This document shows, piece after piece, positions 7,837 to 32,319 of a stretch of 33,448 nucleotides of DNA. Origin of the DNA: Bacteroidales bacterium (GTDB taxonomy: Bacteria; Bacteroidota; Bacteroidia; Bacteroidales; P3); assembly GCA_017480145.1 (NCBI GenBank), contig JAFVBF010000064.1, positions 1-33,448 of the forward strand, written 5' to 3'. A model generated the notes under the pieces. It ran no database searches. It had not been told where the DNA came from and worked only from the letters and a program-made list of their open reading frames with translations. Made by a program: the position numbers and the translations under genes. The number at the start of each line of letters is the position of its first letter. Position 1 is the stretch's first letter.

Positions 7837-10800
7837 TTACCGTGCAATAACAACCTTATGAGCTACCGAAGCCCCTACCTTGACCATATAGACACCTGCA
7901 GAAGACATGGGATAGGACACCTGCTTTGAAGAGACTCTGCTTTCGGAAAGAATCAAGCGACCAGCAACATCGTACACCTGCAACGACTGTCCTTCGGCAT
8001 CAGCAACTACAATGGAACGGCCGGAAGCCCAAACTCTGGCATTGTTTTCAATAATGCCACGTACACCCACCTCGGCAGGATTGGTTGCAAGATGGAGTAC
8101 GGCCGTACTATCACAGCCTGCGCTATTGGCATTGGGCATGAGGTAAGAATAGTCACCTGGCTGCTCATAAACCATGCCATGCCATACGAAGCGTCCGGAG
8201 AACAGGACACAGGTATCGCCAAAGGTGGCACAGGGCAATGTCTCACCGCTAACATCCTTGACAAGACGGACGGAGAATCCTGTGCTGCGCTCATAAGAGT
8301 CTATCTGCACGCCAAAGTTGGTAAAACCTATAGCATAGGCCAAATGCTTGCCATAATGCTGAGATAGCCAATAGTGACCCGTCTGCCCCAAGAAACTGAC
8401 AGTACTGTCAATACGCATACCCGCCGCTGGCAAGAAAACGGCACCGGCTTCTTCCATGAGGCTCCACTGAGTTAGAGTATAATTGTTAGTCCCATAGGAG
8501 GTATCAACACCCGAAACGAAACTACAGCCATCAGGCAAACGCCACAACTCCGGAAGCAATACCAAACCGGGGATAGAATCGACCAACGCAAGGGCACGTT
8601 TGCCAAATGCGTCCACACGGTTGTATAACAAATACTGCCATTCCTCGGTGCTGAGCGTGCGCCACTGCCCAGCAGCATTACCGCCGTTGCTAATAGAGGC
8701 ATACATACCCCAATCATAGTTGGAACTGATGCCCGTCAAATCGGGAGCAACACCGCCAGCCGCAGGGCCATAGCCTCTGTCGGACTCCACGCTGTAGGGC
8801 TGATAGTACTGATTATACGCATCTGTAGGATTGTGATAGCCACTGGTGGCCCAGCCGAAGAGGTCTATCCAACCCAAATAGTAATCGAAAACATCCCCAT
8901 TGACATTGCCGACATAGTCGTACTGATGTTCGGCAAAGCGCCATTGCATGGCACTGGGAAGATACTGCAAATTGCCAGAAGAGAAAGCTATGCGACGGTC
9001 ATGATCAATCTCAAATACACCATTGAGCGACCCCACCCCCTGAGAATCGATAGTCAAATATAGTCGGCAGATACTGTCACAACCTACTGCATTAGCGCCA
9101 AACAATGTGTCGTAGGCCTCGCCAGACTCTTCTAAACGGAAACCATGCCACAGGTAGTAGCCGCAAGCCTCGCCGCTTTCGACCCCCACCGTGCTACGAC
9201 GGACCGTGAGATGTAACGTTATCAGGCTGTCGCACCCCTGATGGTTTAGCAACGTGTGGGAGTGCGTGTCGGTGGCAGAAGAAAGCAGCGTACCAAACCA
9301 GCGGAAAGTATCGCACACGTTATTGAAGGAATCACTGGAAGAGCTGGAGAGCAGCGTGAGTCGCAGATAAATCGTGGAATCGCATCGCACTGCATTGGCA
9401 TTAGGCATGACATAACTATACGTAGTCGTTGTATCACTGATGGTCATGCCATACCAAGAGAGGCTATCGCAGGCTGACGCCAATGTGTCGCCCTCAGTAC
9501 TTGCAAAAATAGAAAGGTGGAGATACAAATTGGAATCACAGCCATAGACATTGCTATCAACTAACGTATGATGATATATGTCTGAACTATCCAGAACAGC
9601 ACCGTACCACACCATACTATCGCACGAGCGAGCAAACGTGTCGCCATCGGAGAAATAGTGTACCGTGAGGAATAGCCGTGCGGTACTATCACAAGTATTG
9701 CTGCTTATATTGAGCGACTGGTCGAAAACGCCCGTGCTGTCATATCTGAGACCATACCACAAAAGGCTGTCACAAACCGCCGTATCAGTAATAGACAAAT
9801 AAGAGTAGGAGATATTGAGACGGACAATAGTGGCACTGTCGCAGCCCTCGCTATTGATACCACTATGAATTAGAACCGTGTCTGTCTGCGTGTAGAGTTC
9901 AATATAATTATTGATAATCGTATCGTAAGGTTCTACCCCGACGAAAATCGTATCACTCTTGGTGTAGTCGTTCTTAAAATACCAAACCGAGTCACATACT
10001 GCCGTATCGTAGATTCCCTTGCTACTTTGACGGACCAACAATACACGCCGATAGGTTGAGTCGCACCCATTCACATCGCGCAATACAGAATCAAGTACAC
10101 TGCTACTGTAGTAATAAGTGCTGTCTATCAAAATGCTGTCGCAAGCAGAAAAAGTGTCGATGGAAATGCGGCTATGAAAGACATTGATATATAATAGTTC
10201 GAGGCTGTCGCACCCTGCCACCGTGGAGAATGTGTCAATCAGAACAGTATCTGAATAATAGTCAATCCCATCATGATAGACAGAATTACAACCGTCGGTC
10301 GAAATAGTATCGTAAGAACTATAATTGACTGTTACGTTAATGGTATAAATACTGTCGCAAAGACCAAAGATCGCGCCATGCACCGTGCGAGTGTAAAGAC
10401 CAGACGAAAGGATGTTAGTTCCGCCCCAAAAATAATAATCACAGACAATAGCCAAAGAGGTATCGTAGGCATCCACACACACTGGATCACAATGTTCGAC
10501 ATCCAATTGCAAAGTCAACACAGAGTCGCACCCGAACATATTGGTGTAGTTTTTCTCGACTAAGCCAGCGACGGAAAGAGAAGTGTCCAGCCACACATAA
10601 GGCAGCAGGGTGTCGCATACTTGCTGGGTATCACGAATCGTATCAGAGTGGTTCACCGTAAGTACCAGCATTATGACACTGTCACAACCATACTGATTGT
10701 CCATCGTGTACGATGTCACAGTATCCAACGTATAGGTAACGCTATCAATCCATAAGAAGTTATCGCAAGCGATGTTGGTATCGCCAGTAGTATCCGTCTT

Positions 10801-13800
10801 GTGCATAATGAGGCTCAGCATGATGACACTATCGCAGCCATATTGGTTGGACAGCAAGACAGAGGCTGTATCACAAGTATCATAATACGTGATTCCGTCA
10901 CGCCAGCGGAGGCTATCGCAAGCGATGAGAGAATCGGAAACACTGTCACGGTGATGGACTGTCAACTTCAAAGCCCAAATGCTGTCGCATCCATAGATGT
11001 TGAGGTTGGAATCGCGAGCCGTATAGTTGCTCAACGTATAGGTCAATCCATCATGCTGCGTCCAAACAAAAGTGTCGCAAACAATATGGGTGTCCGTCAA
11101 AAAGTTGGAGTAATTGACTGTCAAGGACAATGAAACGACGCTGTCACAACCCGACTGATTGACAAAAGTTTTCGTCGTATCAATAGAAGTGGTATAGATG
11201 ATGCCCGTGGACCAAGTGTAGCTATCACATACTATCTGAGTGTCGGCCACCGTATCGGAATAGTGAACGGTGAGCATAAGATGTACCACGCTGTCGCATC
11301 CAAACATATTGGTTAAAGTCTGAGAGACGGCATTGGTGGACATGGTATAGGTAGTGGCATTGGACCACACGTAACTATCGCATACCGTATGAGTATCGCC
11401 CACAGTATCGGAATAATGAACTGTGAGAGCAAGTGTGGCAATACTATCACAGCCATATCGATTGGTCAATGTTCGTGTAGCACCGATAGTATCGTAGGTA
11501 TAAGTATCGCCGTGCCAGGAGAAGGTGTTGCAGACCTCATGAGAATCAATGGTGCTATCCGAATGGTTCACGGTGAGATAGAGCATTGCCAGGCTATCGC
11601 ATCCATGCACATTGATTAAATTTTGCGTGGCTACTGTAGAGGAAGTGTAGGCAATGCCATCCGTCCAGAAGAACGTATCACACACAACCTGCGTGTCACG
11701 AGACACGTCTGCCTGGAAAATGGAAAGATTGAGAACAACAACACTGTCACAGCCAGCACTATTGGGCATACGATGGATGGCACCGACTGTATCCTTGTAA
11801 TAAACATTGCTATCCATCCATACATAATGATGGCAAGCCATCTGGACATCGGTAGCAGTGGTAGATTTCTTGACGTAGAGGATAAGCGTATAGATGCTGT
11901 CGCAGGCAGTGGCATTGGTGATTGTGTCGTGCACTGTCGTATCGCGAATATAGATATCGCCCGTGCGAATCCATGTAAAATTGTCACAAGCCGTACGAGT
12001 ATCCGGAATCGAGACCGATGTTATCACATTGAGTCGAAGGGTCACGACACTGTCGCAGCCATAGATGTTGGGGAAGGTGTCAATGACGGATGTATCGTTG
12101 GTGTAGGTGTTGCCGTCGCTCCATACGAACGAACGGCAAACCGTCTGGTTCTCTATAGCCCGATTGCTCTTATAGACAATTAGATTGAGCAAAAGAGTAC
12201 TGTCGCATCCATCAACCGTATGGAAAGCCTGAGTATCGCTATCATTATTATTCCGGTAGGTACGGCCGTTGGTCCATGTATAGGTGTCGCAGGCAGTGTC
12301 TCGCACGGTGTCGACAACTGAATGATAAACTTTCAGATGCAATGTACGCAGGCTGTCGCAACCGACAGCATTGGTATAAACTCTCGTCGCAACATCGTCG
12401 TCGGTATAGGTGATTCCATTTTCAGCCCAAACATAAGTGTCGCAGGCCGTATCGAAAAAGTCGCTGGAGGAAGATTCCTTTACTGTCAAGAAAAGCACGA
12501 CCACGCTGTCACAACCGGACGCATTAACAAGCGTGTCAATAATCGTTCCAGATGTTGTGTAGGTCCTGTTGCCAATCCAAGAGAGGCTGTCGCATACAGT
12601 TTGATACACGGTGTCAGTGTTGTGATGCCCCAGCGTCAGGAACAACGTTATCAGGCTGTCACACCCCTGCGCATTTGTCTGCGTTTGCGTTCCTGTAAAA
12701 CTGCTTAGATATTCCCTACCATTAGTCCAAACAAAAGATTCGCATGAATGTTGATAATCAGTAAACGAAGTAGAGTGTCGGAGACTCAACGTCAGAGTGA
12801 CCGTACTGTCGCAGCCGTAACGACTGGAAAAGGTTTTGGTGAGCGTAGTGTCAACAGCATAAGTGATGCCATCGCCCCATGTGAAACTATCACATGCCGA
12901 TACAATATCGGGTGTAGCGGTGTGGTGATCCAATGTCAAGTGGAGCGTCACAACGCTATCGCATCCATATTGGTTATGCAGAACACGTATTGACGTATCG
13001 TCATCCTGCGTATAGCCGCGCCCATTGCTCCAGATGAAAATCTCACAGCCCGTTCGATAATCTATCGAACTATCCGTATGGTGCATGGCTAACGACAGGC
13101 GGCGAATACTATCGCAGCCTTCTGACGTTGTCAGCGTATCGTCATAGAGACCAGATTCATAATAGGTAAGTCCCGTCTGACTCCATAGGACGCTGTCACA
13201 GGCAGAATGGATAGAATCAACAATAGCCGAATGGAGCAGGAATAAATTGAGCGTTATCAGGCTGTCGCATCCAACCGCATTAGACATGGTATAAGTGGCA
13301 CTGCTATCATTCTCCACATAGGTCTCACCATCCATCCATAATAGGCTGTCGCACGTGGTCACAGCATCAATAAAGGTCGTAGAACGTCTGACGGAAAGAT
13401 TCAGGACAATATACCGATTGCAACCATAACGATTGGTCAAAGTGTACAGCGCAGAATCATTATCTTCAGTATATATATTACCATCACGCCACAACAGGCT
13501 ATCGCATACATCACGAGTCTCTGTCACCGTATCAGAATGCAATACGGTAAGATTCAAAGTCACAACACTATCACAGTTCTGAGCATTGGCCACCGTGTGG
13601 GTAACAGTATGCGTATTGCGCATATAGGTATGACCATCTATCCAGGTGAGGCTATCGCATACGGTATGGGTATCAGTGCCTGTTGAAGAATGGCGAAGTG
13701 ACAAGTGAAGAGTTACAAGGCTATCGCAACCTAAGTAGGTCGAGATATGGCAAGTTGCAGTATCATTGTCTTCGGCATAGGTATTGCCATCTATCCAAGT

Positions 13801-16800
13801 CAAACTGTCACACTCGGAGATAACCGCAATGCCAGAATCGGGATGTGCCACTGTTAAGGCGAGCGTCACAAGACTATCGCATCCATGATGATTCGCTATG
13901 GTAAAGGTTGCCGAGTCATTATCAGTATAGTAGGTAACAGAGTCTATCCAGAGCAGGCTGTCACAAACTGTAAGGAGATCTGTTCCAGTATTGGAATGAT
14001 ACACCTTTAGATTGAGCGTCACAGTGCTATCGCATCCCTCACGCGTGATAAAAGTATGTGTAGGAATAGCATCTGCATAGTAGGTGTTGCCATCTCCCCA
14101 AAGCAGGCTATCGCAAACAGTATCGTTGATAGTCCCCTCGAAAGTATGCCCCAAAGTCAAATGCAACGTCACCAAACTGTCACACCCTTCTGCATTCACA
14201 AGGGTTTCATGATCAATATACGTACTCAAGTAGGTTTTATCATTCACAGGCCACTTGTAAATATCGCATTCTACATGAGCATCAAGGAAGGTAGACGAAT
14301 GGTGCATTGTGAGATTGAGCGTTCTAATGCTATCACAATCATACCGATTTGTGAACCAAAGGCTCAAAAGTGTGTCTGAAGTATAAGTTTCACCATTCAA
14401 CCATGTATAACTGTCACAAGCCGTAATGTCGTCCACAATGCTATCTCGGATGAGCAGCTGTAATGCCAATACAGAAACGCTGTCGCATCCATACTGGTTG
14501 GCAAAGGTATGGGTATCTATCGTAGAAAGCACATAGATACTGTCGTTGTCCCAATGGTAACTGCCACAAGTTATCACACTCTGCGATGTCGTGTCGGAAA
14601 CATGGTGGATAGACAAACTAAGAGAAACAATGCTGTCACAACCATACTGATTGATGCCGTGATGCGTATGGCGAATACCCAACGTATCTCGATAATAAGT
14701 ATAACCATTGACCCAAATCAGGCTGTCGCAAGCAGAAATAGTATCAATACCCTCAGTAGTAGGATGAATCGTCAAGTTGAGAACATAAAGACTATCGCAC
14801 TTCTGCTGATTCAGATACCTTGCAGTATCAATTGTGCTCTGCTGGTAGGAAGAATCGGTCTCAGCCCAGAAGAAAGCATCGCAAGCCGTGTCATAGCTGA
14901 CATTACGATCAGAGTAATAAACCGTCAGGTATAGCGTAGCCACACTGTCGCATCCTTGAACAGATAGGAGGCTATCCGTACGGCTGAGGCTGGACATATA
15001 GGTGACATAATTCCATACATAACTGTCGCAAGCAGTATCAACAACCGTATCAACCGAGGTATAACCAATACTGAAATCCCTAATCAACAGACTGTCGCAA
15101 CCCGCCTGATTAGAGAGGAAAAGAGTGTCGTACAGGCTTGCATAGAAGTATGTTCCCTGCCAATCAAGGCTATCGCAAGCCAAACGATGCTCCGACACCG
15201 TATCAGCATTTCTCGCGGAGAGATGCAGTGTAACAATGCTGTCGCAACCATAAACATTGGTTAGGGTCTGAGTATAGGTACCTGCGTCTGTCAGATTTAC
15301 ACCATTCCAATCGTAGGGGAAATTGTTGTCACAGATGGTCTCGAATACCGTGGAGTCGTTGTCACAAGAAACACAAAACTGCATATTGACATCCACACCA
15401 TACTGCTGAACAGAAGAGGGTGTTCCGCCTGACATCATGTAGAAGTATTTAAGCGTTGGAACCCCACCGGATATAGAGACGGTAAGATAGTCCTGTGGCA
15501 AGGCATCCATCACTGGATAATCCGTCAGGGGGACCATACCTCCATCCACTTTGTCGCAGGAGAAATAGGTCTGCTGCGAAACCTCGATTGCGACCCAGAA
15601 CGTTCGCCCCGTCTTGACAGCATAAGAAGGCGCGATATGCACCTCTTGTAAGCCAAAGGAATCGGCCACATATGTCTGGGAGAAAACCAAAGACCCCAGA
15701 ACCCCATTGACATCAGTGGTTACCCCGGAAGTGGATAAAGAGGCATCAGGAAAGCAATCCTCATATATCTTGATTGTAAAAGAACGAGGATAGGCAGCAT
15801 TATCGTCAAGAGTTTCAAATTTTAAGGACTTTAAGAATCCGCCTGTGGCAAAATGTCCGAAACGCTCGGGACGAACAATGAGTTGGTCTCCAGCATAGAG
15901 CGTAAGTGTTCGCTGACGGCTGTTACCGCCAAAGCATCCGGATTCGGATACATTCCAATCGGAAGCACAATCGTACAAAGCGAGATGAAGCGTTGCCACA
16001 CTGTCACAGCCCCACTGATTGACAGTATCATAGGTAGCCGTACGGTTGTCTTCAACATAAGTAATGCCATCAACCCAAGTGAAACTACCACAAGCCGCCT
16101 GGTGGTCAATGCCCGTATTTGGCTGATGAATGGTTAGATGGAGATGGATACTGCTGTCACATCCGACAGCATTGGATGAGCCTAAATTCCAGGTAGCACT
16201 GTAGTTGGAAGCCCCATAAGTATTGCCCGATATTGGCCAACGGTAACTGACACAAGCCTCATGGGTATCAATAGAGAAAGAAGAGTGGCGGATAGTAAGA
16301 TGCAGCGTAACAATGCTGTCGCCCGTGGAAGCCGCATTAGACAGCGTGTGCCATGCTAATTCGGTTGAATTCTTATAAGTCGTACCATACCATACAAACG
16401 AGTCACACTCACTGGCGACAGTGTCGCCATACTGGCAATCGCCACCGATGCAGAGTTGGAGCATTACAATACTATCGCAACCGAAAATATTATGCATGGT
16501 GTCGATGTATAGACCAGACGTGGCACAATAGATATTATGCCAGGTTGTGTCGGACGTTGTCACAGCCTGCGTATCCGAAGATTGAGGACCTGACAAGACA
16601 AAATGTAGGGTTATAAGACTATCACAATGCCACTGGTTGAGAAATGAAGCCGTATCATCGGTACTGACTGCATAGGTACTGTCATTAACACTCCAATGGG
16701 CTGGCATCGCCTCACAGGAAATCAACGTATCGTTCGTCAGACTACTTTGATGAATAGTAAGATTCAGTACATAAATACTGTCGCAGACATTCGTGCCAAT

Positions 16801-18999
16801 AGGAGGCACAGTGTCCAGATATACATCTGAAGAGGTTAGGTTGTTTCCTCTCCAATAAAAACTATCGCAGTTGGTGACAGTATCTGAGGAGATAGAAGCA
16901 TTATCTATTGTAAGATATAATGTATCGATGGAAGGGCAACCCGCAGCATTACTATAACGATGGATATATGTTCCACTATTACTATAAGTCTCACTATTGG
17001 CAGACCACTGGAAACTATCACAAGCTGTGGTTCTGGTCATCGTTGTATCACCAAGGCAGACCGGGGTGTATTCCTCTGTACAGAACTGGAAATCGAAATC
17101 ATAATATTCGTTCTCTCTCAAAAGGAAATAGAATAATGTGTCATTCGTCGTGCTAAGCGTCGTAACCATATACTGCCTTGATAGCGTCGTAGTCTGATTA
17201 CAGTAAAATCTGGTTGCTTCCTCGGCACGAATAGAAATCCAAAAATCACGTCCTGAAGTTATTTCATAAGGGGTTGTCAAAGTCACAGTCTGGAGACCCT
17301 CATTAGCGGCATAGTAATCCTGAGTGTAGACCAAAGAGCCTAAAACAGAAGGATCATAGTAATCGCCTAAGGATGTCTGCAAACGTTCTGTAAGCTGTCC
17401 ATCCTCGTATATATGTATTTTAAAATTCTTTGAGGCCTGGGTAATCCTGAATTGAATCTGATATACCCGATAGCCTGTGGCGAAATTACCTATGGCCTCA
17501 GGACGGACGATTACCTGACCATTTGCCATGATATTGATATGGGTGGGCGTACTGATATTATTACCATAACACCCTTCAGGAGATGGAGTGCCATCAGGCT
17601 GATAAAGGAGCAACGTATCATAAACTCCATCATGAGAAAAGACAACCTGCCCAGTACGACTGGATCCCGAAGTGTTGTGTCGGGCAAAAATCCGTATTTT
17701 TGTCATTGTACCACTGCCCGCTCCTTCATAAGAGCTGAACGACAACCAAGGGTAATCGTGAGGAGCATAGACATGCCAATTTTCACTTGAGTGGGAAGAG
17801 CTAACCACCCAGCAGTCGATAGTATCACCCCAACGGGACAACTCTGTAGCAGAAGGGGTGACAACAAATCCGTGCGATAACGGACGGATTCCTACTATGG
17901 CTAAATTATCCTGATTAAAGGTATTGGAGTTGTTGCTGCCTATACCGCCACCACCTGGATTGAGAGCGCCTATCTGAAAATATCCATCATAACTACCCCC
18001 CCAGCCCCAATTGAAGTGGAAAGCCCCCAAATTGTCATAACCGTCGCAGATAAAAGCATGACCGGCATCATCATCGTAGCCAGCATAAAACACCGGACGC
18101 CCAGCATCAATCTCGTCCTTCAGTAACTGAGTCCACGTGGATGAGTTATCTTCATATCTTTTTAATGATAATCCCTCTCTAAAACTGAAATTTTGAGTGA
18201 GAGCGGTCAGCACTGCCGTTGGCATGGCACTGCTGCCACCATTGGCATTAAGGCCAAATGTGGTTGAAAGACTAACCCCGCAATGGTACATGAGCTGAGC
18301 CACGGCAGCCTTTTCAGCATCGGAACTGGCAGAAGAAAGCGATAATGGCATGTTTCTCCAGCGATACTGCGTGCTGCCAAAATTGGCACTCAACATCTGA
18401 CCAGAACCTGCATCGAAGTAGTTTTTACCTCCCGTCCCAGTTATCGGGGACTTCCAATAGCGCATAATCTGCGCCAATGCCGTTGCGGTACATCCCGTAA
18501 CTGTAAGTTCGCCACCAATGGAAGGACAACTGTCGTTATAGAAAGGGCTTTGATTCCATCTGGTCTGAACCAGCGGGCCAACGATGCTATAGGAGGAAGC
18601 CCCAGGACTCCGCAATGGGCGAAAATGATAGCCAGTAGAAGTATCGCTTGCAGCAAGATAGGCTACCTGTTCATCATAGGACTGAATCCATGCTGCGACA
18701 GAGGATGGGATAGGCAATGTAAATGAATTTTGAGCAGAGTAGCCAAGGACAGAGACTGCGGCATCATCAGTAGATAAAACAACAAAACCTCTGCCGCTGG
18801 AGGGAGAAAAAATGTAGAGGTTGTCATAACCTGCAGCGTCAGCAATATTATGGAAAGAGGCGGTATCGGAAGGATTGCCGCCTATGGATACAAACGTCTG
18901 CTGAGCCTTACGCCTGGCCTGCTGCGGAGACACGGGGGAGGCCCACATGCCTTGTATAAAAAATAAGAAAGAAAGAATATAGAGTATTCGTGATCTCAT
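7837..18999 (-). CDS. Giant T9SS-secreted C10 cysteine protease with about 49 Cys-rich repeats
   Basis: A 3720-residue secreted protein. The signal peptide spans about 1-20 and a SpeB-type prodomain about 21-125. The C10 peptidase spans about 137-375, with oxyanion Gln150 (W-N-Q), catalytic Cys170 (T-G-C-T-A-T-A), His314 (G-H-A-F-I-C-D-G-Y) and the N-W-G-W-G-G segment (330-335). A BACON-like domain (about 378-475) follows. A domain of about 170 residues occurs twice (about 476-645 and 1013-1210), flanking repeats 1-7; repeats 8-48 follow to about 3320. Each unit is about 51 residues with two Cys (C-D-S-x-x-W and G-C-D-S-x-x-x-L). A Fib_succ_major-like domain (about 3320-3585), a 49th repeat and a T9SS type-A sorting domain (last 75 residues, ending K-V-V-I-A-R) complete it. 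It is probably anchored at the cell surface as a protease on a long disulfide-rich stalk. The substrate is unknown; the protease resembles SpeB and Prevotella interpain A. Confidence 0.88.
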   Translation of the reverse strand: MRSRILYILSFLFFIQGMWASPVSPQQARRKAQQTFVSIGGNPSDTASFHNIADAAGYDNLYIFSPSSGRGFVVLSTDDAAVSVLGYSAQNSFTLPIPSSVAAWIQSYDEQVAYLAASDTSTGYHFRPLRSPGASSYSIVGPLVQTRWNQSPFYNDSCPSIGGELTVTGCTATALAQIMRYWKSPITGTGGKNYFDAGSGQMLSANFGSTQYRWRNMPLSLSSASSDAEKAAVAQLMYHCGVSLSTTFGLNANGGSSAMPTAVLTALTQNFSFREGLSLKRYEDNSSTWTQLLKDEIDAGRPVFYAGYDDDAGHAFICDGYDNLGAFHFNWGWGGSYDGYFQIGALNPGGGGIGSNNSNTFNQDNLAIVGIRPLSHGFVVTPSATELSRWGDTIDCWVVSSSHSSENWHVYAPHDYPWLSFSSYEGAGSGTMTKIRIFARHNTSGSSRTGQVVFSHDGVYDTLLLYQPDGTPSPEGCYGNNISTPTHINIMANGQVIVRPEAIGNFATGYRVYQIQFRITQASKNFKIHIYEDGQLTERLQTSLGDYYDPSVLGSLVYTQDYYAANEGLQTVTLTTPYEITSGRDFWISIRAEEATRFYCNQTTTLSRQYMVTTLSTTNDTLFYFLLRENEYYDFDFQFCTEEYTPVCLGDTTMTRTTACDSFQWSANSETYSNSGTYIHRYSNAAGCPSIDTLYLTIDNASISSDTVTNCDSFYWRGNNLTSSDVYLDTVPPIGTNVCDSIYVLNLTIHQSSLTNDTLISCEAMPAHWSVNDSTYAVSTDDTASFLNQWHCDSLITLHFVLSGPQSSDTQAVTTSDTTWHNIYCATSGLYIDTMHNIFGCDSIVMLQLCIGGDCQYGDTVASECDSFVWYGTTYKNSTELAWHTLSNAASTGDSIVTLHLTIRHSSFSIDTHEACVSYRWPISGNTYGASNYSATWNLGSSNAVGCDSSIHLHLTIHQPNTGIDHQAACGSFTWVDGITYVEDNRTATYDTVNQWGCDSVATLHLALYDCASDWNVSESGCFGGNSRQRTLTLYAGDQLIVRPERFGHFATGGFLKSLKFETLDDNAAYPRSFTIKIYEDCFPDASLSTSGVTTDVNGVLGSLVFSQTYVADSFGLQEVHIAPSYAVKTGRTFWVAIEVSQQTYFSCDKVDGGMVPLTDYPVMDALPQDYLTVSISGGVPTLKYFYMMSGGTPSSVQQYGVDVNMQFCVSCDNDSTVFETICDNNFPYDWNGVNLTDAGTYTQTLTNVYGCDSIVTLHLSARNADTVSEHRLACDSLDWQGTYFYASLYDTLFLSNQAGCDSLLIRDFSIGYTSVDTVVDTACDSYVWNYVTYMSSLSRTDSLLSVQGCDSVATLYLTVYYSDRNVSYDTACDAFFWAETDSSYQQSTIDTARYLNQQKCDSLYVLNLTIHPTTEGIDTISACDSLIWVNGYTYYRDTLGIRHTHHGINQYGCDSIVSLSLSIHHVSDTTSQSVITCGSYHWDNDSIYVLSTIDTHTFANQYGCDSVSVLALQLLIRDSIVDDITACDSYTWLNGETYTSDTLLSLWFTNRYDCDSIRTLNLTMHHSSTFLDAHVECDIYKWPVNDKTYLSTYIDHETLVNAEGCDSLVTLHLTLGHTFEGTINDTVCDSLLWGDGNTYYADAIPTHTFITREGCDSTVTLNLKVYHSNTGTDLLTVCDSLLWIDSVTYYTDNDSATFTIANHHGCDSLVTLALTVAHPDSGIAVISECDSLTWIDGNTYAEDNDTATCHISTYLGCDSLVTLHLSLRHSSTGTDTHTVCDSLTWIDGHTYMRNTHTVTHTVANAQNCDSVVTLNLTVLHSDTVTETRDVCDSLLWRDGNIYTEDNDSALYTLTNRYGCNRYIVLNLSVRRSTTFIDAVTTCDSLLWMDGETYVENDSSATYTMSNAVGCDSLITLNLFLLHSAIVDSIHSACDSVLWSQTGLTYYESGLYDDTLTTSEGCDSIRRLSLAMHHTDSSIDYRTGCEIFIWSNGRGYTQDDDTSIRVLHNQYGCDSVVTLHLTLDHHTATPDIVSACDSFTWGDGITYAVDTTLTKTFSSRYGCDSTVTLTLSLRHSTSFTDYQHSCESFVWTNGREYLSSFTGTQTQTNAQGCDSLITLFLTLGHHNTDTVYQTVCDSLSWIGNRTYTTSGTIIDTLVNASGCDSVVVLFLTVKESSSSDFFDTACDTYVWAENGITYTDDDVATRVYTNAVGCDSLRTLHLKVYHSVVDTVRDTACDTYTWTNGRTYRNNNDSDTQAFHTVDGCDSTLLLNLIVYKSNRAIENQTVCRSFVWSDGNTYTNDTSVIDTFPNIYGCDSVVTLRLNVITSVSIPDTRTACDNFTWIRTGDIYIRDTTVHDTITNATACDSIYTLILYVKKSTTATDVQMACHHYVWMDSNVYYKDTVGAIHRMPNSAGCDSVVVLNLSIFQADVSRDTQVVCDTFFWTDGIAYTSSTVATQNLINVHGCDSLAMLYLTVNHSDSTIDSHEVCNTFSWHGDTYTYDTIGATRTLTNRYGCDSIATLALTVHYSDTVGDTHTVCDSYVWSNATTYTMSTNAVSQTLTNMFGCDSVVHLMLTVHYSDTVADTQIVCDSYTWSTGIIYTTSIDTTKTFVNQSGCDSVVSLSLTVNYSNFLTDTHIVCDTFVWTQHDGLTYTLSNYTARDSNLNIYGCDSIWALKLTVHHRDSVSDSLIACDSLRWRDGITYYDTCDTASVLLSNQYGCDSVIMLSLIMHKTDTTGDTNIACDNFLWIDSVTYTLDTVTSYTMDNQYGCDSVIMLVLTVNHSDTIRDTQQVCDTLLPYVWLDTSLSVAGLVEKNYTNMFGCDSVLTLQLDVEHCDPVCVDAYDTSLAIVCDYYFWGGTNILSSGLYTRTVHGAIFGLCDSIYTINVTVNYSSYDTISTDGCNSVYHDGIDYYSDTVLIDTFSTVAGCDSLELLYINVFHSRISIDTFSACDSILIDSTYYYSSSVLDSVLRDVNGCDSTYRRVLLVRQSSKGIYDTAVCDSVWYFKNDYTKSDTIFVGVEPYDTIINNYIELYTQTDTVLIHSGINSEGCDSATIVRLNISYSYLSITDTAVCDSLLWYGLRYDSTGVFDQSLNISSNTCDSTARLFLTVHYFSDGDTFARSCDSMVWYGAVLDSSDIYHHTLVDSNVYGCDSNLYLHLSIFASTEGDTLASACDSLSWYGMTISDTTTTYSYVMPNANAVRCDSTIYLRLTLLSSSSSDSFNNVCDTFRWFGTLLSSATDTHSHTLLNHQGCDSLITLHLTVRRSTVGVESGEACGYYLWHGFRLEESGEAYDTLFGANAVGCDSICRLYLTIDSQGVGSLNGVFEIDHDRRIAFSSGNLQYLPSAMQWRFAEHQYDYVGNVNGDVFDYYLGWIDLFGWATSGYHNPTDAYNQYYQPYSVESDRGYGPAAGGVAPDLTGISSNYDWGMYASISNGGNAAGQWRTLSTEEWQYLLYNRVDAFGKRALALVDSIPGLVLLPELWRLPDGCSFVSGVDTSYGTNNYTLTQWSLMEEAGAVFLPAAGMRIDSTVSFLGQTGHYWLSQHYGKHLAYAIGFTNFGVQIDSYERSTGFSVRLVKDVSGETLPCATFGDTCVLFSGRFVWHGMVYEQPGDYSYLMPNANSAGCDSTAVLHLATNPAEVGVRGIIENNARVWASGRSIVVADAEGQSLQVYDVAGRLILSESRVSSKQVSYPMSSAGVYMVKVGASVAHKVVIAR
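9040..17045 (-). repeat. Tandem repeat array of about 150 bp per unit coding for C-D-S-W modules
   Basis: Reading the protein, I count 48 consecutive units here (a 49th lies after the next domain), interrupted once by a non-repeat domain at about 15370-15939. Units are 49-54 residues with a few longer ones: number 39 is extended, and number 43 has about 20 extra residues. Conserved positions are C-D-S/T, Trp at about position 6, Tyr at about 12, G-C-D-S at about 28-31, and L-x-L before a Ser/Asp-rich link. Units 16-21 and 33-35 are more alike than the rest, suggesting recent local duplication. At DNA level the copies have diverged strongly, so the protein pattern is under selection. Confidence 0.85.
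15370..15939 (-). repeat. Second copy of a domain duplicated within the giant protein
   Basis: This encodes about 190 residues starting G-C-F-G-G-N, with V-R-P-E-R-F-G-H-F-A-T-G, T-I-K-I-Y-E-D, V-L-G-S-L-V-F-S-Q and T-G-R-T-F-W-V-A-I. The segments align in order with copy one. It splits the repeat array after unit 7, as if a block of domain plus repeats had been duplicated. Boundaries are approximate. Confidence 0.7.
17060..17573 (-). repeat. First copy of a domain duplicated within the giant protein
   Basis: This encodes about 170 residues starting G-C-Y-G-N-N, with V-R-P-E-A-I-G-N-F-A-T-G, K-I-H-I-Y-E-D, V-L-G-S-L-V-Y-T-Q and S-G-R-D-F-W-I-S-I. It is beta-rich in appearance and jelly-roll-like by inference. 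The same series occurs at 15370-15939. Boundaries are approximate. Confidence 0.7.
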
Positions 19000-19102
19000 A
19001 TTAACGTTATTTCAAGTTCGTATATGGGATTTCTTGTTTTCATTTCACGATTCATTAGTTAGCATCAAGGCCCTGTTGAGTTAGAGAGTGTGAGATATTG
19101 TG

Positions 19103-22100
19103 CTATTCAGTGACAATGACCTTGCGGGCCCCGAATTCTCCTACCTTGACCATATAAGCCCCCTTGGCGGGTACCTGAAAAGAAGCACGAGATGTCGAAA
19201 TGCGAGATTCGGAGGCGATAAGCCGCCCTGTGACATCATAAATACGAAGCGGAAGACCTTCGGCACCAGCCACGATGACATTGTGAGGGGCAGCCCAAAC
19301 CTTGACATTGCTACGGTCAATGGTGCTGATGGCGGTTGGAGACTTGATGGTAAGATGGAGAACCACGGTACTATCACAGCCTTCGGCATTGGCATTGGCC
19401 AAAAGATGAGGATAGTCGCCAGACTCGTAATAGGTAGTGCCAAACCATGTAAGACTATCGAAAACCGCTATAGTGGTATCGCCATAGGTGGCACATGGCT
19501 GAATGCCATTAGTGACATCGTGCACCAATCGCACCGAACGTCCGATGCTGCGATCCAACGGTTCGACACTGACACGAGAGCGCTCAATGACAAACACATA
19601 AGCATCACTTGCATCATAGTGACGAGAGGACCAATAATAACCATTATGAGCCACCATGCTGACGGTGCTTTCGGAACGGAGTCCCGCTGCTGGCAAGAAG
19701 ACAGCCCCAGCAGACTCCATGCTGAGCCACATGGCAGCGGAATAGACATTGGTTTCATAGCCCAAATTGCTTCCCTCGGAGAAACGTATTCCTGTGGGCT
19801 GTGCCCAACTTTCTGGAAGAAGTATTACACCAGGGACACCTGCGACTGTGGCCAATGCACGCTTATTGACAGCCTTGTCACGATAGAAGAGAAGGTACTG
19901 CCATTCGTTCTCTGTAAGTGTACGCCAACGTCCTGCGGCATTGCCTCCATTACGAATAGCACAGTAGATACCCCAATCATAATTGGAGCTTACACCATCG
20001 AAGTCAGCATTGACAATGGATGTAGATGGTCCATAGCCATGGGAGTTATCTTCAGCGACAGTACTGGAGACCATGTCGAAGGGCATATAGTGGACATTGT
20101 GGGGATCACGAGGGTTATGATAGCCCGAGGCCCCCCATCCAAAGAGATCTATCCAGTCCATATACTCGGCAGAGGCACTAATGTTAGTAGCTCCAATGAT
20201 GTCATACTGATGAGCTGCAAAGCGCCAAATACTGGAATCAGGGCGATACTGTAGGTTGCCGGCGGAGAAACTCACCAGAACATTGTCGTCCACAGCGAAT
20301 ACGCCGCTCAAAGAGCCCTTGCTTTCTGCAACCAGCGTAAGATGAAGCACCACCACGCTATCACAATTTACCACATTTGTGAGTGTGTCGTAGGTTTCAC
20401 CTTCATGGGTAACAGTATATCCATGCCAGATATAGAAACCTGAAGCTGTGGCCGACTCGTCAGAAGAGGAGGAACGCCGAACACTAAGCGACAATGTCAC
20501 AACACTATCGCACCCGAAACTATTGACTATCGTGGCCATAGTTACCGTGTCTTCGGTATAATAAGTGCCATTCCATAAGATACCATCGCATACATCAGCC
20601 ATGGTGTCGCCTACAGAAGTATATCCAAGAGCAAGTACAAGCATAATGGAAGAATCACAGCCTGCCTCATTTTGCACAGCAAGCGGCTGAGGATAACTGC
20701 CCGAAGCATACCGATAGATGCCGTTCCATAGGAAGCTATCGCAGGCAGTAACAAACGTATCAAACTGGGTGCTACGAAGAATTGTCAAATCAAGAGCCAC
20801 ATTAATATTGCAGCCCACCTCATTCACATCGATAGGATGATAGTAACGACCCGAAGCAGACAAAGTGTCGCCATACCATAGAAGCGTGTCGCAGACAGAA
20901 GCAGAAGAATCATTATTGGTACTTTGCTTAACCGTAAGGTTAACCGTGATAACACTGTCACACCCCACCGCATTGGGGATCGTGACAAGGGCTACTCTGG
21001 TTGTGCGAGAATAGACACTACCACCCCATACCAAAGAGTCGCACACAGTAGAATCACAAGCGCCACGTGAAGACTTTTTAATATCAAAGTAAATATGGGT
21101 GATAGAGTCGCACCCGTTGACATCGCGAGCAGAAGTATTACGAGATGTATTGGAGCGAAGCACATTGCGCATGAATATGACACTATCGCAGGCGACAACC
21201 GTATCGTAAGCATCCTCTTGAATGGGGAACACCGTGATGACAACCTGTACGGAACTATCGCAACCATAGATAGAGGTATATGTGGTGTCGAAGAAAGACG
21301 TATCGCTGGTGTAGATGGTGCCCCGGAACGCGACACTGTTGCAAGCCTTAGCCGCAATGGTGTCAATATACTCATGGCCTATGGCAAGATCAAGGACATA
21401 TATGCTGTCGCAACCTTCTGACGCAACCCCTTCAACAGCGTGCTCATAGAATCCGGAAACCAAAAGGGTGCTGTCATACCAATAGTAACTGTCGCAGGAT
21501 AGTACAGTTATTGTATCATATATATCATAGCAAAGCGGAGGAACAATCGTATCTATAGGCTCGGGGGATTCAGTGGTATCCCAGTAAGCGATAAAAATGG
21601 AATCTGATGACACCAAAACTCGACGGGGATTGTCGGTCACACCATCCTGCCAACGAACAAATAGAAATCCATCGGAAGGGATGGCCCTTAGAACGATTTC
21701 GGATCCCTCATCAAAACTGCCACCACCAGACACCGTGCCCATATCCTCATTGTCGGAAAGAACCTGAATCTCGAACTGCGAAGACATGCCCAACTGAGTG
21801 AATCTGATTTCGTGCTGCTGGTCACCCTGTCTAACGGTAATCCTGACTGTACGGGGAGAAGATGCAGGGTTGGTATCGGCAATGACCAGAAGACGAGAAA
21901 GAGTTCCCTCGCCAGGTCCCATATTGGAATCGAAGGTTACCCAATCGTCTGATCCAGAGACTGACCAATCGTCTGCAATATGAGCTGCGCCGCGAATCCA
22001 GATGGACAACGTATCACCAAAATAAGAAAAGATGCTATCCTTAGCCGAGACAACAAGATTTTCGACTACCGGATGGATTCCCATAATGGCTTTAACATTC

Positions 22101-23239
22101 GCATTGTACGTGTTGGTTGTATTTTCGTCATATCCTCCATTCTGAGGTTGCAGGCTGCCGACCCGATAAAAGCCATCGGCAACACCTCCCCAGCCCCAAT
22201 TGAAATGGAAAAGTCCCTCACTATCATAGCCGTCACAGACTAACGAATGTTCAAACTCACGAAGGACATCCCAACGACCATTAGGACTATCGTAATCATA
22301 AACACTGTCGCCACCATAATAAAGCACCGGACGCCCCTCATCTATCTCCTGACGTAGACTCTCTTCCCAACCCTCAGTATCGTAATCCCTAAAATAAAGC
22401 CATGACGGCTCGTCTATTAAGTAATCAAAATGAGCCGCAAAAGCATCATATACATCAATTTCGTTACTATAGACAGCACTATCGACTGAGTCATTTCGAG
22501 CATAGCCGGGCATCTTGACGCTGGCATCGCAAAAATATACTAATTTCGCAATCTCATCTTTCTGTTCAATACTGTTAGCAGAAGATAGCGAGAGTGGCAT
22601 TTTCCCCCAATCAAAAGAAATCGTAGAGAAATCGACAGAGACCGTTCCAAAAGGAGTGTCCTCGCACTGTTCCTGCCCAACTCCAACTGAGGGATAATTC
22701 CAATAGCGCATAATCTGAGCCATGGAGGTGGCCACACTTCCCGTAAAACACTGCAGAGCATCTAACTCAGTAATGGAGCCACTGTATGGAGATACAGGCC
22801 CCCAAGCAGAGGCGAGCAACGGACCCACCACTTCATAAACGCCCTTGGAAGGCTTAGAGACACTTGTTTTCTTAGACGATGGGGGAAGACTATGTTTTTT
22901 TATAAATGAAATTTCGTCATCATAAGCCTGTATGCGGGAACGAACAGGCTCTGGCATCGGCAGTTGAAATTTGCCAGAGGCGGAATAAGCCAATACTGGA
23001 TAGGTGCAGTCATCAGCAGAAAGAATCACGAAACCACCTTCGTCGGACACATATATGTATAAATTGCGAAATCCCGCATCCGAAGCGATTTCATGAAAGA
23101 CAACATCCGAAGACCGCCCCCCAATCAATAGATAAGTTTTTCGCGCTTGCTGCTCAGCCTGCCATGGAGATATAGGATTGGCAAGGAGCATTGTATTAAA
23201 CAGAAAAAGTATCGTTATAAGGGAGAATCGCAATTTCAT
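19103..23239 (-). CDS. T9SS-secreted C10 pseudopeptidase with Cys-rich repeats
   Basis: A 1378-residue paralogue of the giant neighbour. The signal peptide spans about 1-20 and the SpeB-type prodomain about 21-130. The C10 fold spans about 138-395 and keeps His331 (E-H-S-L-V-C-D-G-Y) and N-W-G-W-G-G. However, Ser168 (codon AGT, 22736-22738) stands where the giant protein has catalytic Cys170 (TGT), and Pro148 stands where the oxyanion Gln should be. Both changes together argue that it is proteolytically dead. A BACON-like domain (about 395-485), an InlB B-repeat-like domain (about 488-555), eight C-D-S repeats (about 575-975), a Fib_succ_major-like domain (about 976-1241), a ninth repeat and a T9SS sorting domain ending K-V-I-V-T-E follow. 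It begins 43 bp after the 875-residue gene with no promoter evident in the gap. It may bind substrate or regulate the active paralogue (inference). Confidence 0.87.
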   Translation of the reverse strand: MKLRFSLITILFLFNTMLLANPISPWQAEQQARKTYLLIGGRSSDVVFHEIASDAGFRNLYIYVSDEGGFVILSADDCTYPVLAYSASGKFQLPMPEPVRSRIQAYDDEISFIKKHSLPPSSKKTSVSKPSKGVYEVVGPLLASAWGPVSPYSGSITELDALQCFTGSVATSMAQIMRYWNYPSVGVGQEQCEDTPFGTVSVDFSTISFDWGKMPLSLSSANSIEQKDEIAKLVYFCDASVKMPGYARNDSVDSAVYSNEIDVYDAFAAHFDYLIDEPSWLYFRDYDTEGWEESLRQEIDEGRPVLYYGGDSVYDYDSPNGRWDVLREFEHSLVCDGYDSEGLFHFNWGWGGVADGFYRVGSLQPQNGGYDENTTNTYNANVKAIMGIHPVVENLVVSAKDSIFSYFGDTLSIWIRGAAHIADDWSVSGSDDWVTFDSNMGPGEGTLSRLLVIADTNPASSPRTVRITVRQGDQQHEIRFTQLGMSSQFEIQVLSDNEDMGTVSGGGSFDEGSEIVLRAIPSDGFLFVRWQDGVTDNPRRVLVSSDSIFIAYWDTTESPEPIDTIVPPLCYDIYDTITVLSCDSYYWYDSTLLVSGFYEHAVEGVASEGCDSIYVLDLAIGHEYIDTIAAKACNSVAFRGTIYTSDTSFFDTTYTSIYGCDSSVQVVITVFPIQEDAYDTVVACDSVIFMRNVLRSNTSRNTSARDVNGCDSITHIYFDIKKSSRGACDSTVCDSLVWGGSVYSRTTRVALVTIPNAVGCDSVITVNLTVKQSTNNDSSASVCDTLLWYGDTLSASGRYYHPIDVNEVGCNINVALDLTILRSTQFDTFVTACDSFLWNGIYRYASGSYPQPLAVQNEAGCDSSIMLVLALGYTSVGDTMADVCDGILWNGTYYTEDTVTMATIVNSFGCDSVVTLSLSVRRSSSSDESATASGFYIWHGYTVTHEGETYDTLTNVVNCDSVVVLHLTLVAESKGSLSGVFAVDDNVLVSFSAGNLQYRPDSSIWRFAAHQYDIIGATNISASAEYMDWIDLFGWGASGYHNPRDPHNVHYMPFDMVSSTVAEDNSHGYGPSTSIVNADFDGVSSNYDWGIYCAIRNGGNAAGRWRTLTENEWQYLLFYRDKAVNKRALATVAGVPGVILLPESWAQPTGIRFSEGSNLGYETNVYSAAMWLSMESAGAVFLPAAGLRSESTVSMVAHNGYYWSSRHYDASDAYVFVIERSRVSVEPLDRSIGRSVRLVHDVTNGIQPCATYGDTTIAVFDSLTWFGTTYYESGDYPHLLANANAEGCDSTVVLHLTIKSPTAISTIDRSNVKVWAAPHNVIVAGAEGLPLRIYDVTGRLIASESRISTSRASFQVPAKGAYMVKVGEFGARKVIVTE

Positions 23240-23282
23240 ATATATTGTTCTAAAAGTTGATTACTCGCGATAATATAGGCAT

Positions 23283-25910
23283 TTAGCGAACAATTACCTT
23301 ACGTGCAGGGTACTGCCCCACACGAATCAAATAGATACCAGCGGCAGGTGCGGCAAAAGAGCAAGACCCAGTGGCAGCAAAATTACTATTGAGCAAACGT
23401 CCCTGCATGTCAAAGAGACAGACCTGCTGGTTATCGGCACCACGAACCACAATATCACGTCCCTGCGTGAGAATAGTGGACCGATCCAAAAGTACCGTAT
23501 TGATGCCGACCTGACCTATGGAGAGGTGAATCGTCACAATAGAATCACACTCATTAGTGATTTCGGTATCATATTGATATTGATAGTCGCCCGCTTCTAC
23601 AAGTTCCTCACCACGCCATACAAAAATGGAGTCGACCCGAACCGTCGTATCGACATACACTGTGCATGAACGAGTCTCAGCCACATCCTGAACCAAGCGA
23701 ACGGAACGCCCCACATGACGAGGGTAGGCCTCGACCGACATGGCGACATCGGTTAGGACGAAGAGATAGGCACTCTCAGAGTCGTAGTGTGTGGCAGACC
23801 AATAATAGCCATACTCATCCTCACCACTGGCGATATACATAAAACGGTTGCCTGCTGCTGGCAGGAATGCCGCACCATGAGTCTGCATGGTCTGCCACTG
23901 CTCAATGGTATAGATATTGGTGGAAAAACCATTGTCGGAGCCTGGAGTAAAAGTGCTATTGTCAGGCTGCACCCAACTCTCAGGAAGGAGGACAACGCCT
24001 CTCACCGTAACAGCCCCGCTGATGTCTGTAATGGAAGCCTGGGCTCTTTTGTTGGCCGCATTGCGACGGTGGAAAAGGAGGTGCGTCCACTCGTCAGCCG
24101 TCATCGTACGCCAAATACCAGCCTTGTTTTCTCCATTGGAGATGGGGTTGCGAATGCCCCAGTCATAGTTGGAAGCCATGTTGGAGAAATCAAGTTCCGA
24201 CATATCGACAGAAGGGCCATAGCCCTTGGCGTTATACTGATAATCCACGTTTTCATTGTTGGTGGCCCAAGGCTGATAGACCGTGTTATGGACATCGGAT
24301 GAATTATGGTATCCGCTGGTTCCCCAGCCAAAAAGGTCTAACCAGCCAGCATAATCAGCAGAAGCATAGCGATTGCCCTGTCCCATGAAATCAAACTGAT
24401 GCTCCGCGAAACGCCATTTGGACGTGCTCGGCATGAATTGCAAATTGCCCTGAGAGAACGCGACGTAGCGTCCATTGTATTTCTTGAGAGCCTCTTCGCC
24501 ATTGTCGGTATCCAAATGGTCTTCATCATCATATTCGACCTCCTCGCCTGCCTCGACTTCAAAAGCCCCAGACAGTTCACCCTCGCCTTGCGGGAAGAGC
24601 GTAAGGTGTAGATAGGTGACGCTATCACAACCAATGGAGTTGAATGTGTGGTAGGAATAGACGCCCGTTTCGGTGTATTTGGTGTAATGCCAAATATAAT
24701 AGCCACAGGCTATGGCGGTGTCGTGTGCAGGATGATTGTCAAGCAGGACAATACGAATATTCACCACGCTATCGCAGCCATAGTCACCCTCATAGCGATG
24801 CGTTTCTGCTATGGTCTCAGTGAAATAGACGCTATCTTTCCAAAAAACGCTGTTGCAGCCAACCACAGCCGAATCACTACTGACGCTCTTGTTTATAACA
24901 AGATGCAACATAAGGGTACTGTCGCACCCCTGAGCATTCTTTGCAAACTGATCGGCAGCAATCACGTCGGAAGAAGCATAAAGCATCTGTCCATGCCAGT
25001 AAAAGGAATCACAGGCTTCGGCAGAAGTATCGGCGTGCGTGTCATGATGCATGACCATATTGAGACGAAGCGTGCTGTCGCAGCCATGGATTGTAGCATT
25101 ACGGAAAACATGAGTAGGAGTACCGCCATAATAGGTGACTCCATACCATGAAACACTATCACACACAACAGCCGTTGTGTCGCCCGACTGGGCATAATGC
25201 ATAGTCAAATTGATGGCGACCACGCTGTCACAACCCAGATGGCTCGTAAAAGTAGCGGTAGGACCGACGGTATCGGAATAAAAGACCTTGCCCCCCCAAA
25301 GATACTGGTCGCAAGCCTCGGTAGTGAATGTGGTATGAATGGCTTCCTGCACCATAATAGACACCGAACTGACACTGTCACACACGCCAATACTGATGGT
25401 ATCGGACCACGACGTATCGGAAGTATAGGTCTGGCCAGCAAATTCAACAGCATTACATCCGCTAATAGAAGTATCAAAAGAGGCATTGCCCGGCAAAATC
25501 TCAAGAGGGAAATAATAGATGCTGTCGCAGCCATCGGCCGCAACCCCTCTTTTGGTTTCCTTAGCCCAACCTGACTCGGTATATTCTATTCCGTTGAAAG
25601 AAAGGCTCCCACAGCCATAGCGTACTTCATCCTGCGTGTCACGTACAGAGAGGTGGAGCGTAAGGATGAGACATGCGATGGAGTCGCATCCGTCTTCAGC
25701 CCAGCGGCCTACTACTTCACAAGCCTGACCACGAGAACGGCTTTGACGATAGATATTGCCCTGCCAAATAAAACTATCACAGGCATTATCAACGGTAACA
25801 TAAGACCATGGCTTCAAATCACAGTTGTCCTGAGCAAAAATAGCAGTGTTGTTGAAAACTAATGCTCCAAAAAGCATAAATACAACAATTACAAACTGTT
25901 TCGTGTTCAT
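23283..25910 (-). CDS. T9SS-secreted repeat protein without protease domain
   Basis: An 875-residue paralogue lacking the protease module. A signal peptide of about 26 residues (ending A-I-F-A-Q) leads straight into eight C-D-S-type repeats (about 35-435). A Fib_succ_major-like domain (about 441-740) follows, starting with an acidic insertion of about 25 residues (E-V-E-A-G-E-E-V-E-Y-D-D-E-D) absent from the other two. Then come one further repeat (about 745-800) and a T9SS type-A sorting domain ending K-V-I-V-R. Fib_succ-type landmarks include N-L-Q-F, W-R-F-A-E-H-Q, D-L-F-G-W-G-T-S-G-Y, W-R-T-M-T-A-D-E-W, F-L-P-A-A-G and G-Y-Y-W-S-A-T-H-Y. It is the first gene of the three-gene set, with its own promoter upstream. 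It is probably a surface adhesin or scaffold; the binding partner is unknown. Confidence 0.85.
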   Translation of the reverse strand: MNTKQFVIVVFMLFGALVFNNTAIFAQDNCDLKPWSYVTVDNACDSFIWQGNIYRQSRSRGQACEVVGRWAEDGCDSIACLILTLHLSVRDTQDEVRYGCGSLSFNGIEYTESGWAKETKRGVAADGCDSIYYFPLEILPGNASFDTSISGCNAVEFAGQTYTSDTSWSDTISIGVCDSVSSVSIMVQEAIHTTFTTEACDQYLWGGKVFYSDTVGPTATFTSHLGCDSVVAINLTMHYAQSGDTTAVVCDSVSWYGVTYYGGTPTHVFRNATIHGCDSTLRLNMVMHHDTHADTSAEACDSFYWHGQMLYASSDVIAADQFAKNAQGCDSTLMLHLVINKSVSSDSAVVGCNSVFWKDSVYFTETIAETHRYEGDYGCDSVVNIRIVLLDNHPAHDTAIACGYYIWHYTKYTETGVYSYHTFNSIGCDSVTYLHLTLFPQGEGELSGAFEVEAGEEVEYDDEDHLDTDNGEEALKKYNGRYVAFSQGNLQFMPSTSKWRFAEHQFDFMGQGNRYASADYAGWLDLFGWGTSGYHNSSDVHNTVYQPWATNNENVDYQYNAKGYGPSVDMSELDFSNMASNYDWGIRNPISNGENKAGIWRTMTADEWTHLLFHRRNAANKRAQASITDISGAVTVRGVVLLPESWVQPDNSTFTPGSDNGFSTNIYTIEQWQTMQTHGAAFLPAAGNRFMYIASGEDEYGYYWSATHYDSESAYLFVLTDVAMSVEAYPRHVGRSVRLVQDVAETRSCTVYVDTTVRVDSIFVWRGEELVEAGDYQYQYDTEITNECDSIVTIHLSIGQVGINTVLLDRSTILTQGRDIVVRGADNQQVCLFDMQGRLLNSNFAATGSCSFAAPAAGIYLIRVGQYPARKVIVR

Positions 25911-25963: not shown

Positions 25964-25998
25964 CAAAAATAATATTTTTTAATAAAATAAAACACAAA
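25964..25998 (-). promoter_or_regulatory. Putative promoter of the three-gene secreted-protein set
   Basis: The minus strand has the -7 box TATTTTTG (25964-25971). A possible -33 TTTG lies at 25995-25998, separated by 23 nt, which is at the long end of the usual range. Transcription would start about 45 nt before the start codon at 25910. I find no comparable box in the gaps before the other two genes, which supports co-transcription. Confidence 0.5.
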
Positions 25999-26000
25999 AA

Positions 26001-26027
26001 GAGCACAAATGTCAGACATTTGTGCTC
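26001..26027 (-). terminator. Intrinsic terminator after the 26082 porin
   Basis: A 12-bp perfect stem (26001-26012 with 26016-26027) has a 3-nt loop. On the minus strand it is followed directly by TTTTTGTGTTTT. It lies 54 bp after the porin stop and just before the promoter of the next set, so it separates the two transcription units. Confidence 0.88.
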
Positions 26028-26081
26028 TAAACGATGCCTCATCCGAAGATGGAGGAAAATCACTCGAAAATACTCCGAATC

Positions 26082-27494: not shown

Positions 27495-27514
27495 AATATT
27501 TAACCATTCATAGT

Positions 27515-32312: not shown

Positions 32313-32319
32313 GTCAGGG

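What the first reader, a model, noticed from the sequence alone, without database searches (positions are those of the whole stretch)
7837..25910. Three-gene set of giant T9SS proteins: active protease, dead protease and protease-free paralogue
The sequence shows three consecutive minus-strand genes whose products share the same C-terminal half (C-D-S repeat units, Fib_succ_major-like domain, one more repeat, T9SS sorting domain). They differ at the N-terminus: intact C10 protease, mutated C10 protease, and no protease. One promoter precedes the set. I infer co-expression and a joint surface function, such as a cell-surface protease with a decoy or substrate-presenting partner and a scaffold. 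I know of C10 proteases in Bacteroidetes (interpain A, Bfp/Btp enzymes) but not of this three-part arrangement.
Basis: partly seen in the sequence, partly recalled or inferred. Interest (0 to 1): 0.8.

Follow-up and report, generated by a model that had tools for sequence, protein, structure and literature searches.

The report
Surface proteins with live and dead protease
An uncultured Bacteroidales bacterium carries three neighbouring genes for long, probably surface-attached stalk proteins, one tipped with a protease, one with the same protease apparently inactivated and one with none; among the genomes searched only this species has the set, and a close relative has a simpler, protease-free pair in its place.

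Summary
Three minus-strand genes (875, 1378 and 3720 aa in transcription order) share a tail of ~51-aa two-cysteine 'CDS' repeats, a Fib_succ_major-like domain, one more repeat and a T9SS-type C-terminus. The 3720-aa protein has an intact C10 protease with an I69 prodomain; the 1378-aa protein has both, but with catalytic Cys->Ser and oxyanion Gln->Pro; the 875-aa protein has neither.

A fixed three-part system is not supported. Strong matches to the tail occur in 4 of 120 same-genus genomes, and only the window's has the trio. At the matching locus G078 has two protease-free relatives. G027 has a related protein with intact C10 elsewhere. G002 is too fragmented to tell.

Dead C10 domains recur: 3 of 28 long C10 genes in 22 genomes (this one included) lack catalytic residues, each with a different pattern.

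Best reading: a fast-evolving surface-adhesin locus with protease modules gained or lost on stalks, one perhaps kept as a folded, non-catalytic module. In layout it resembles P. gingivalis gingipains and HagA. New variant of a known kind.

The parts
23283..25910 (-). Gene A (P0003), 875 aa, protease-free: 8 CDS repeats (24594-25790), FS domain (23682-24521), one more repeat, CTD (23289-23486)
   Evidence: clade with G078 and G002 proteins, support 100/100
19103..23239 (-). Gene B (P0002), 1378 aa, dead C10: I69 (22910-23182), C10 (22166-22804), BACON (21794-21970), InlB-like (21632-21751), 8 CDS repeats (20333-21505), FS (19514-20332), one more repeat, CTD (19112-19339)
22736..22738 (-). Codon of Ser168 in place of the catalytic Cys; the aligned oxyanion position is Pro148
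7837..18999 (-). Gene C (P0001), 3720 aa, intact C10: I69 (18664-18942), C10 (17977-18558), sub-cut-off BACON and DUF4082 matches, CDS repeats in two blocks (15973-17028, 9046-15342), FS (8251-9051), one more repeat (8086-8190), CTD (7846-8055)
18490..18492 (-). Codon of catalytic Cys170 (His314 at 18058-18060, Gln150 at 18550-18552)
25964..25998 (-). Bacteroidota-type promoter-like site before gene A (TTTG-N23-TATTTTTG; usual spacing 19-21, recalled)
   Evidence: 5 matches in the window, 0.64 expected
26000..26028 (-). Terminator-like hairpin between the upstream porin gene and gene A
   Evidence: 13-pair stem plus T run
26082..31208 (-). Neighbour genes CK-OTC-DASS-porin (in transcription order), used as the synteny anchor; not part of the set

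Best explanation
A fast-evolving locus for T9SS-exported surface stalk proteins. Shown: genes A and B have protease-free relatives side by side at the same place in G078, next to CK-OTC-DASS-porin; here B carries a C10 domain without its catalytic Cys and oxyanion Gln, and a third gene C carries an intact C10 on a stalk of about 49 repeats. Inferred: all three pass through Sec and T9SS, are trimmed by the sortase and held at the surface by their C-terminal ends, so that the N-terminal C10 domains sit at the outer tips of stalks of very different length; C is a surface-tethered protease activated by loss of its I69 propeptide; A and B bind or adhere through the FS domain (possibly C-type-lectin-like, recalled kinship of Fib_succ_major and Lcl_C) and repeats; B's dead C10 is kept as a folded binding module (substrate, propeptide or inhibitor capture).
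For: Domain order and open frames. T9SS sortase in the genome. A and B relatives, 15 bp apart and without protease, at the matching locus of G078; A clade 100/100, B of G000, G078 and G002 86/82. Fast change: G078's A and B tails are 52% and 58% identical to those here while OTC is 94% and CK 98%. The C10 domains of B and C lie in one clade of 8 (90/95) from G000, G002, G027 and G078. B's C10 branch is 1.34 and its tail branch 0.43; for C they are 0.63 and 0.58, for G027's B, with an intact C10, 1.21 and 0.72: relative to the tail, the dead domain has changed most. It is still full-length, without stops, at E 1.4e-41. Where B has Ser, the solved SpeB zymogen 1dki has Ser and interpain 3bb7 Ala. 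Dead C10 domains are also in G002 (L219) and G020 (L238).
Against: No expression, localisation, structure or activity data. TIGR04183 matches are below cut-off. One species only carries this dead B, so selection on the domain cannot be measured; a long branch is not peculiar to dead domains (G027's intact one 1.21). The kinship of B's C10 is unsure: IQ-TREE joins it to C's (87/86), FastTree to G027's B (0.83). The genome is 80.7% complete.
Confidence: 0.55

Rival explanations
1. Relic: the C10 domain of B is merely decaying on the way to loss. A B-type protein of G027 has an intact C10, that of G000 a dead one, that of G078 none: three stages of one process, with no function for the dead domain.
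For: Three states in three species; the dead domain has changed most relative to its tail; no remnant of the module is seen in G078's B.
Against: The dead domain is full-length, without stops and keeps its I69 partner; dead C10 domains also stand in two further genomes. G027's B is not at this locus, and gain cannot be told from loss.
Confidence: 0.25
2. One reading: an obligate three-part machine (active protease, decoy or substrate presenter, scaffold) acting as one complex.
For: Co-directional genes with short gaps and one Bacteroidota-type promoter-like site in front; shared tails.
Against: No trio was found in the 119 other genus genomes searched; the close relative G078 has A and B without protease. 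In G002 the linkage cannot be read.
Confidence: 0.13
3. B is an active serine variant: Ser168 with His331 works as a serine protease.
For: His and the NWGW motif are kept; the codon AGT is one base from a Cys codon.
Against: The oxyanion Gln is also lost (Pro148), there is an insertion before the His, and Ser or Ala stands at this position in solved zymogen chains (that these were made inactive on purpose is recalled).
Confidence: 0.03

Closest known systems
Porphyromonas gingivalis RgpA/Kgp with HagA, and PG0410-PG0411
   Same: T9SS-type surface proteases whose C-terminal adhesin domains are shared with a protease-free protein; in W83 a gingipain-type gene lies just upstream of an adhesin-only gene (passages of PMC5266723)
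   Different: Gingipains (family C25, recalled), not C10; other adhesin repeats; no dead-protease member in the passages seen
Streptopain homologues among T9SS cargo of Bacteroidales family S24-7
   Same: C10 proteases already reported among predicted T9SS cargo, in 26 genomes (passages of PMC4936053): a C10 T9SS cargo is not new
   Different: No stalk repeats, dead copy or gene set is mentioned in the passages seen
Clostridioides difficile CspB with pseudoproteases CspA and CspC
   Same: An active protease with two relatives that lack catalytic residues; both dead ones have critical roles (passages of PMC6636752)
   Different: Subtilisin-like, spore proteins, no surface stalk
Bacteroides fragilis Bfp C10 proteases with Bfi inhibitors
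   Same: C10 protease genes co-transcribed with a neighbour (passages of PMC2873492)
   Different: The partner is a small staphostatin-like inhibitor, not a dead or protease-free paralogue
Interpain A and streptopain (SpeB)
   Same: Same C10 family; gene C's N-terminal 333 aa match interpain A at 4.6e-39
   Different: No CDS-repeat stalk or FS domain in the solved chains matched (321 aa or 251-380 aa)

Membership tests
Peptidase C10 (P0001) | Pfam PF01640 over its cut-off | tested here: met
   201.8 bits, cut-off 26
Peptidase C10 (P0001) | Catalytic Cys and His with oxyanion Gln (roles recalled) | tested here: met
   Q150, C170, H314
Peptidase C10 (P0001) | Protease activity | not testable with these tools
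   needs the protein
Peptidase C10 (P0002) | Pfam PF01640 over its cut-off | tested here: met
   143.3 bits, cut-off 26
Active C10 peptidase (P0002) | Catalytic Cys with oxyanion Gln | tested here: not met
   Ser168 and Pro148 at these columns; the other 70 of 71 aligned domains keep Q, C and H
T9SS cargo (all three) | C-terminal sorting domain | tested here: inconclusive
   TIGR04183 16.3-21.5 bits, cut-off 23; DUF6383 over its cut-off (23.7) in P0002 only (28), below it in P0001 (18.5) and P0003 (21.1)
T9SS cargo (all three) | T9SS sortase in the genome | tested here: met
   NF033707, 996.8 bits, cut-off 420
T9SS cargo (all three) | Translocon genes (SprA, PorV and others) | not tested
   not searched
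Fib_succ_major (FS domain) | Pfam PF09603 match | tested here: inconclusive
   not among the matches of the three whole proteins; 9 of 43 relatives match weakly, best 8.4e-4
DGR target (FS domain) | Template repeat beside a reverse transcriptase | tested here: not met
   one RT match in the genome; no template-like match between its contig and the window plus five own-genome stretches
Gingipain/HagA-type system | Gingipain protease and cleaved adhesin domains | tested here: not met
   no such Pfam match at E 0.01; the likeness is of layout only

The most novel reading that the evidence does not exclude
Surface C10 proteases of this genus are repeatedly turned into non-catalytic binding modules on long stalks (pseudo-C10 proteins), and here a dead one is co-expressed with a live one, so that the dead domain captures substrate, propeptide or host inhibitor for its active neighbour.
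Probability: 0.2. Interest if true: 0.65.

Novelty: new variant of a known kind. Interest (0 to 1): 0.42.

Why it matters
If B's dead C10 has a function, it would be a pseudoprotease of the C10 (SpeB) family encoded beside an active one, and the states seen among B-type proteins (live in G027, dead here, absent in G078) would make testable how a surface protease becomes an adhesin. The ~51-aa two-cysteine repeat, found in 13 of 198 Bacteroidota genomes sampled, the own one included, has no clear Pfam model (34 members scanned: most widespread match GXWXG in 3, best single match DUF7930 6.5e-6 in 1) and no convincing solved relative (best E 0.24).

Tried and rejected
Diversity-generating retroelement acting on the FS domains: one reverse transcriptase match in the genome, no template-variable pair between its contig and the window plus five other own-genome stretches. 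Rejected for the parts tested.

A general FS-C10 gene pair: suggested by 3 of 79 named FS loci (L130, L136, L162). Of 20 further stretches taken around C10 matches (the C10 profile was annotated in 18), 1 had an FS gene beside the C10 gene, and that one (L242) has the length of L162's contig, so it is probably the same. Rejected as a rule.

Dead C10 tied to CDS stalks: a first count gave 3 dead of 14 complete ORFs with a repeat match against 0 of 47 without (one-sided p 0.010). It was biased: one dead gene had been fetched whole because it was dead. All 28 C10 ORFs of at least 1000 aa in the 22 genomes were then read (4 of them cut by a contig end): 3 dead of 13 with a repeat match, 0 of 15 without (p 0.087). 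Not claimed. One of the three (L238) has only one or two repeat matches.

Frequency of dead C10: 4 of 117 distinct domains with both columns aligned. This sample leans to the best and the weakest matches, so it gives no rate for the genus. Rows without an aligned Cys or His (fragments, masked or cut rows) were dropped before that count.

Full report
What is there. Three minus-strand genes, in transcription order A (23283-25910, 875 aa), B (19103-23239, 1378 aa) and C (7837-18999, 3720 aa), are separated by 43 and 103 bp. Pfam finds C10 peptidase and the I69 (Spi-type) domain in B and C and neither in A. All three end with CDS repeats, an FS domain, one more repeat and a T9SS-type C-terminus; the tails align over 837-853 columns. 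With a profile built here the repeats number 50-51 in C, 9 in B and 8-9 in A, mostly 49-52 aa apart. Tandem Repeats Finder lists no array inside the set, so I infer that the units are old and that a collapsed or expanded assembly is unlikely.

Catalytic state. C keeps Gln150, Cys170, His314; B has Pro148, Ser168, His331. Of 95 C10 ORFs in the loci then held, 75 were distinct and the 71 over 180 residues were aligned: 70 keep Gln, Cys and His, only B departs. That set came mostly from best-scoring hits. From a listing of the C10 matches of 22 genomes I therefore took 38 of the 44 matches under 180 bits (left out: B itself and five fragment rows) and 2 stronger ones. Three more dead ones appeared: L219 in G002 (R,S,I at the Gln, Cys, His columns), L213/L238 in G020 (Q,D,Q) and L234 in G002 (Cys->Ser, His kept, ORF cut by the contig end). 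All 28 C10 ORFs of at least 1000 aa in those 22 genomes were then read: 25 keep Cys and His, 3 do not (P0002, L219, L238). Their three patterns differ, which suggests separate losses (inference).

Operon. A 13-pair terminator-like hairpin lies between the porin and gene A, followed by a Bacteroidota-type promoter-like site; that composite pattern occurs 5 times in the window against 0.64 expected, once inside gene C, and not in the two gaps. The short pattern TANNTTTG also lies twice inside the end of gene A, upstream of B, and a sigma-70-like match of 9 of 12 spans the start of gene C. This is consistent with, not proof of, one transcript.

Relatives. Equal contig lengths suggest that G002 is Candidatus Colimorpha onthohippi (JAGHVA) and G027 the goat isolate RGIG3361 (JAFSPS); NCBI places Candidatus Colimorpha in Bacteroidales incertae sedis. 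The window's own species stayed unnamed. C10 domains occur in 120 of 120 genus genomes. The shared tail matches over 400 bits in 4 of 120, next best 298 bits; at most 15 candidates were scored per genome. At the matching locus G078 has A (790 aa) and B (908 aa), 15 bp apart, both without C10, followed by a repeat protein with a CHU_C domain. G002 has A at a contig end, so its follower is unknown; a B-type tail and the start of a protein with intact C10, repeats and FS lie at other contig ends and may be one gene. G027 has a B-type protein with intact C10 elsewhere (L072) and, one gene after its porin, a repeat protein of 1841 aa without a C10 match, CHU_C-like by eye. G030 has two repeat proteins (738 and 407 aa) near its DASS gene. 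Around the porin match of 18 further genomes (of 85 with a porin match) one search shows no C10, one ORF with a single repeat match (L271), one with FS matches (L262) and two with a CTD match (L272, L274).

Trees. Tail tree: A-type 100/100; B of G000, G078 and G002 86/82, with G027's B 93/91; gene C's tail outside both, its place unresolved. C10 tree: B and C together (87/86) in a clade of 8 (90/95) from G000, G002, G027 and G078; B is flagged as the one long row, with G027's intact domain close behind (1.34 and 1.21). A quick FastTree with more rows puts B beside G027's B (0.83) and C beside L071 of G002 (0.75). Either way the C10 modules of these proteins are related, and live, dead and absent states are seen among B-type proteins. 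Gain cannot be told from loss.

Mechanism. C-terminal anchoring of T9SS cargo (recalled from P. gingivalis) would put the FS domain near the membrane and the C10 domain at the outer tip, on a stalk of about 49 units in C and 8 in B. The sortase is present; the translocon genes were not searched. That B's dead C10 binds something is inference. The layout resembles RgpA/Kgp and HagA (PMC5266723, passages seen), and active-plus-dead protease sets are known from CspB/CspA/CspC (PMC6636752, passages seen). C10 proteases as T9SS cargo have been reported for S24-7 (PMC4936053, passages seen).

Literature. Searches for C10 protease with pseudoprotease (0 papers), for C10 family with catalytic cysteine changes (2 papers by listing, neither on C10 by title) and for the repeat word (0 papers) found no description of a C10 pseudoprotease or of this repeat in the held library, which lacks most subscription papers.

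Noticed in passing
window 31341-32426 and 31825-31882 / 32966-33023: Transposase-like gene (HTH_38; rve below its cut-off) near the window's end, with a 58-bp stretch repeated at 97% identity 1.1 kb away.
   Followed up: no
window 7538-7582: Near-perfect 45-bp palindrome between gene C and the convergent outer-membrane-protein gene, a likely two-way terminator.
   Followed up: no
window 15343-17445 (P0001 residues 519-1219): By eye, gene C holds two copies of a DUF4082-like domain, one before and one after the first repeat block; Pfam lists only the first, below its cut-off.
   Followed up: no
L091/L092 (G055:C9) and L093/L094 (G104:C7): Open frames of 7264 and 8112 aa with a C10 domain near the start and CDS repeats further on: larger than the one in the window.
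   Followed up: partly
L219 303-4235: In G002, a C10 domain that has lost Gln, Cys and His, on 11 CDS repeats and a CTD.
   Followed up: partly
L087 12002-16660: Repeat protein with an IgGFc_binding domain (1.1e-57), third gene downstream of G027's C10-FS protein.
   Followed up: no
L138 4556-11231 and L151 8960-17933: Side-by-side pairs of protease-free repeat-FS proteins in other Bacteroidales, like the A-B pair.
   Followed up: no
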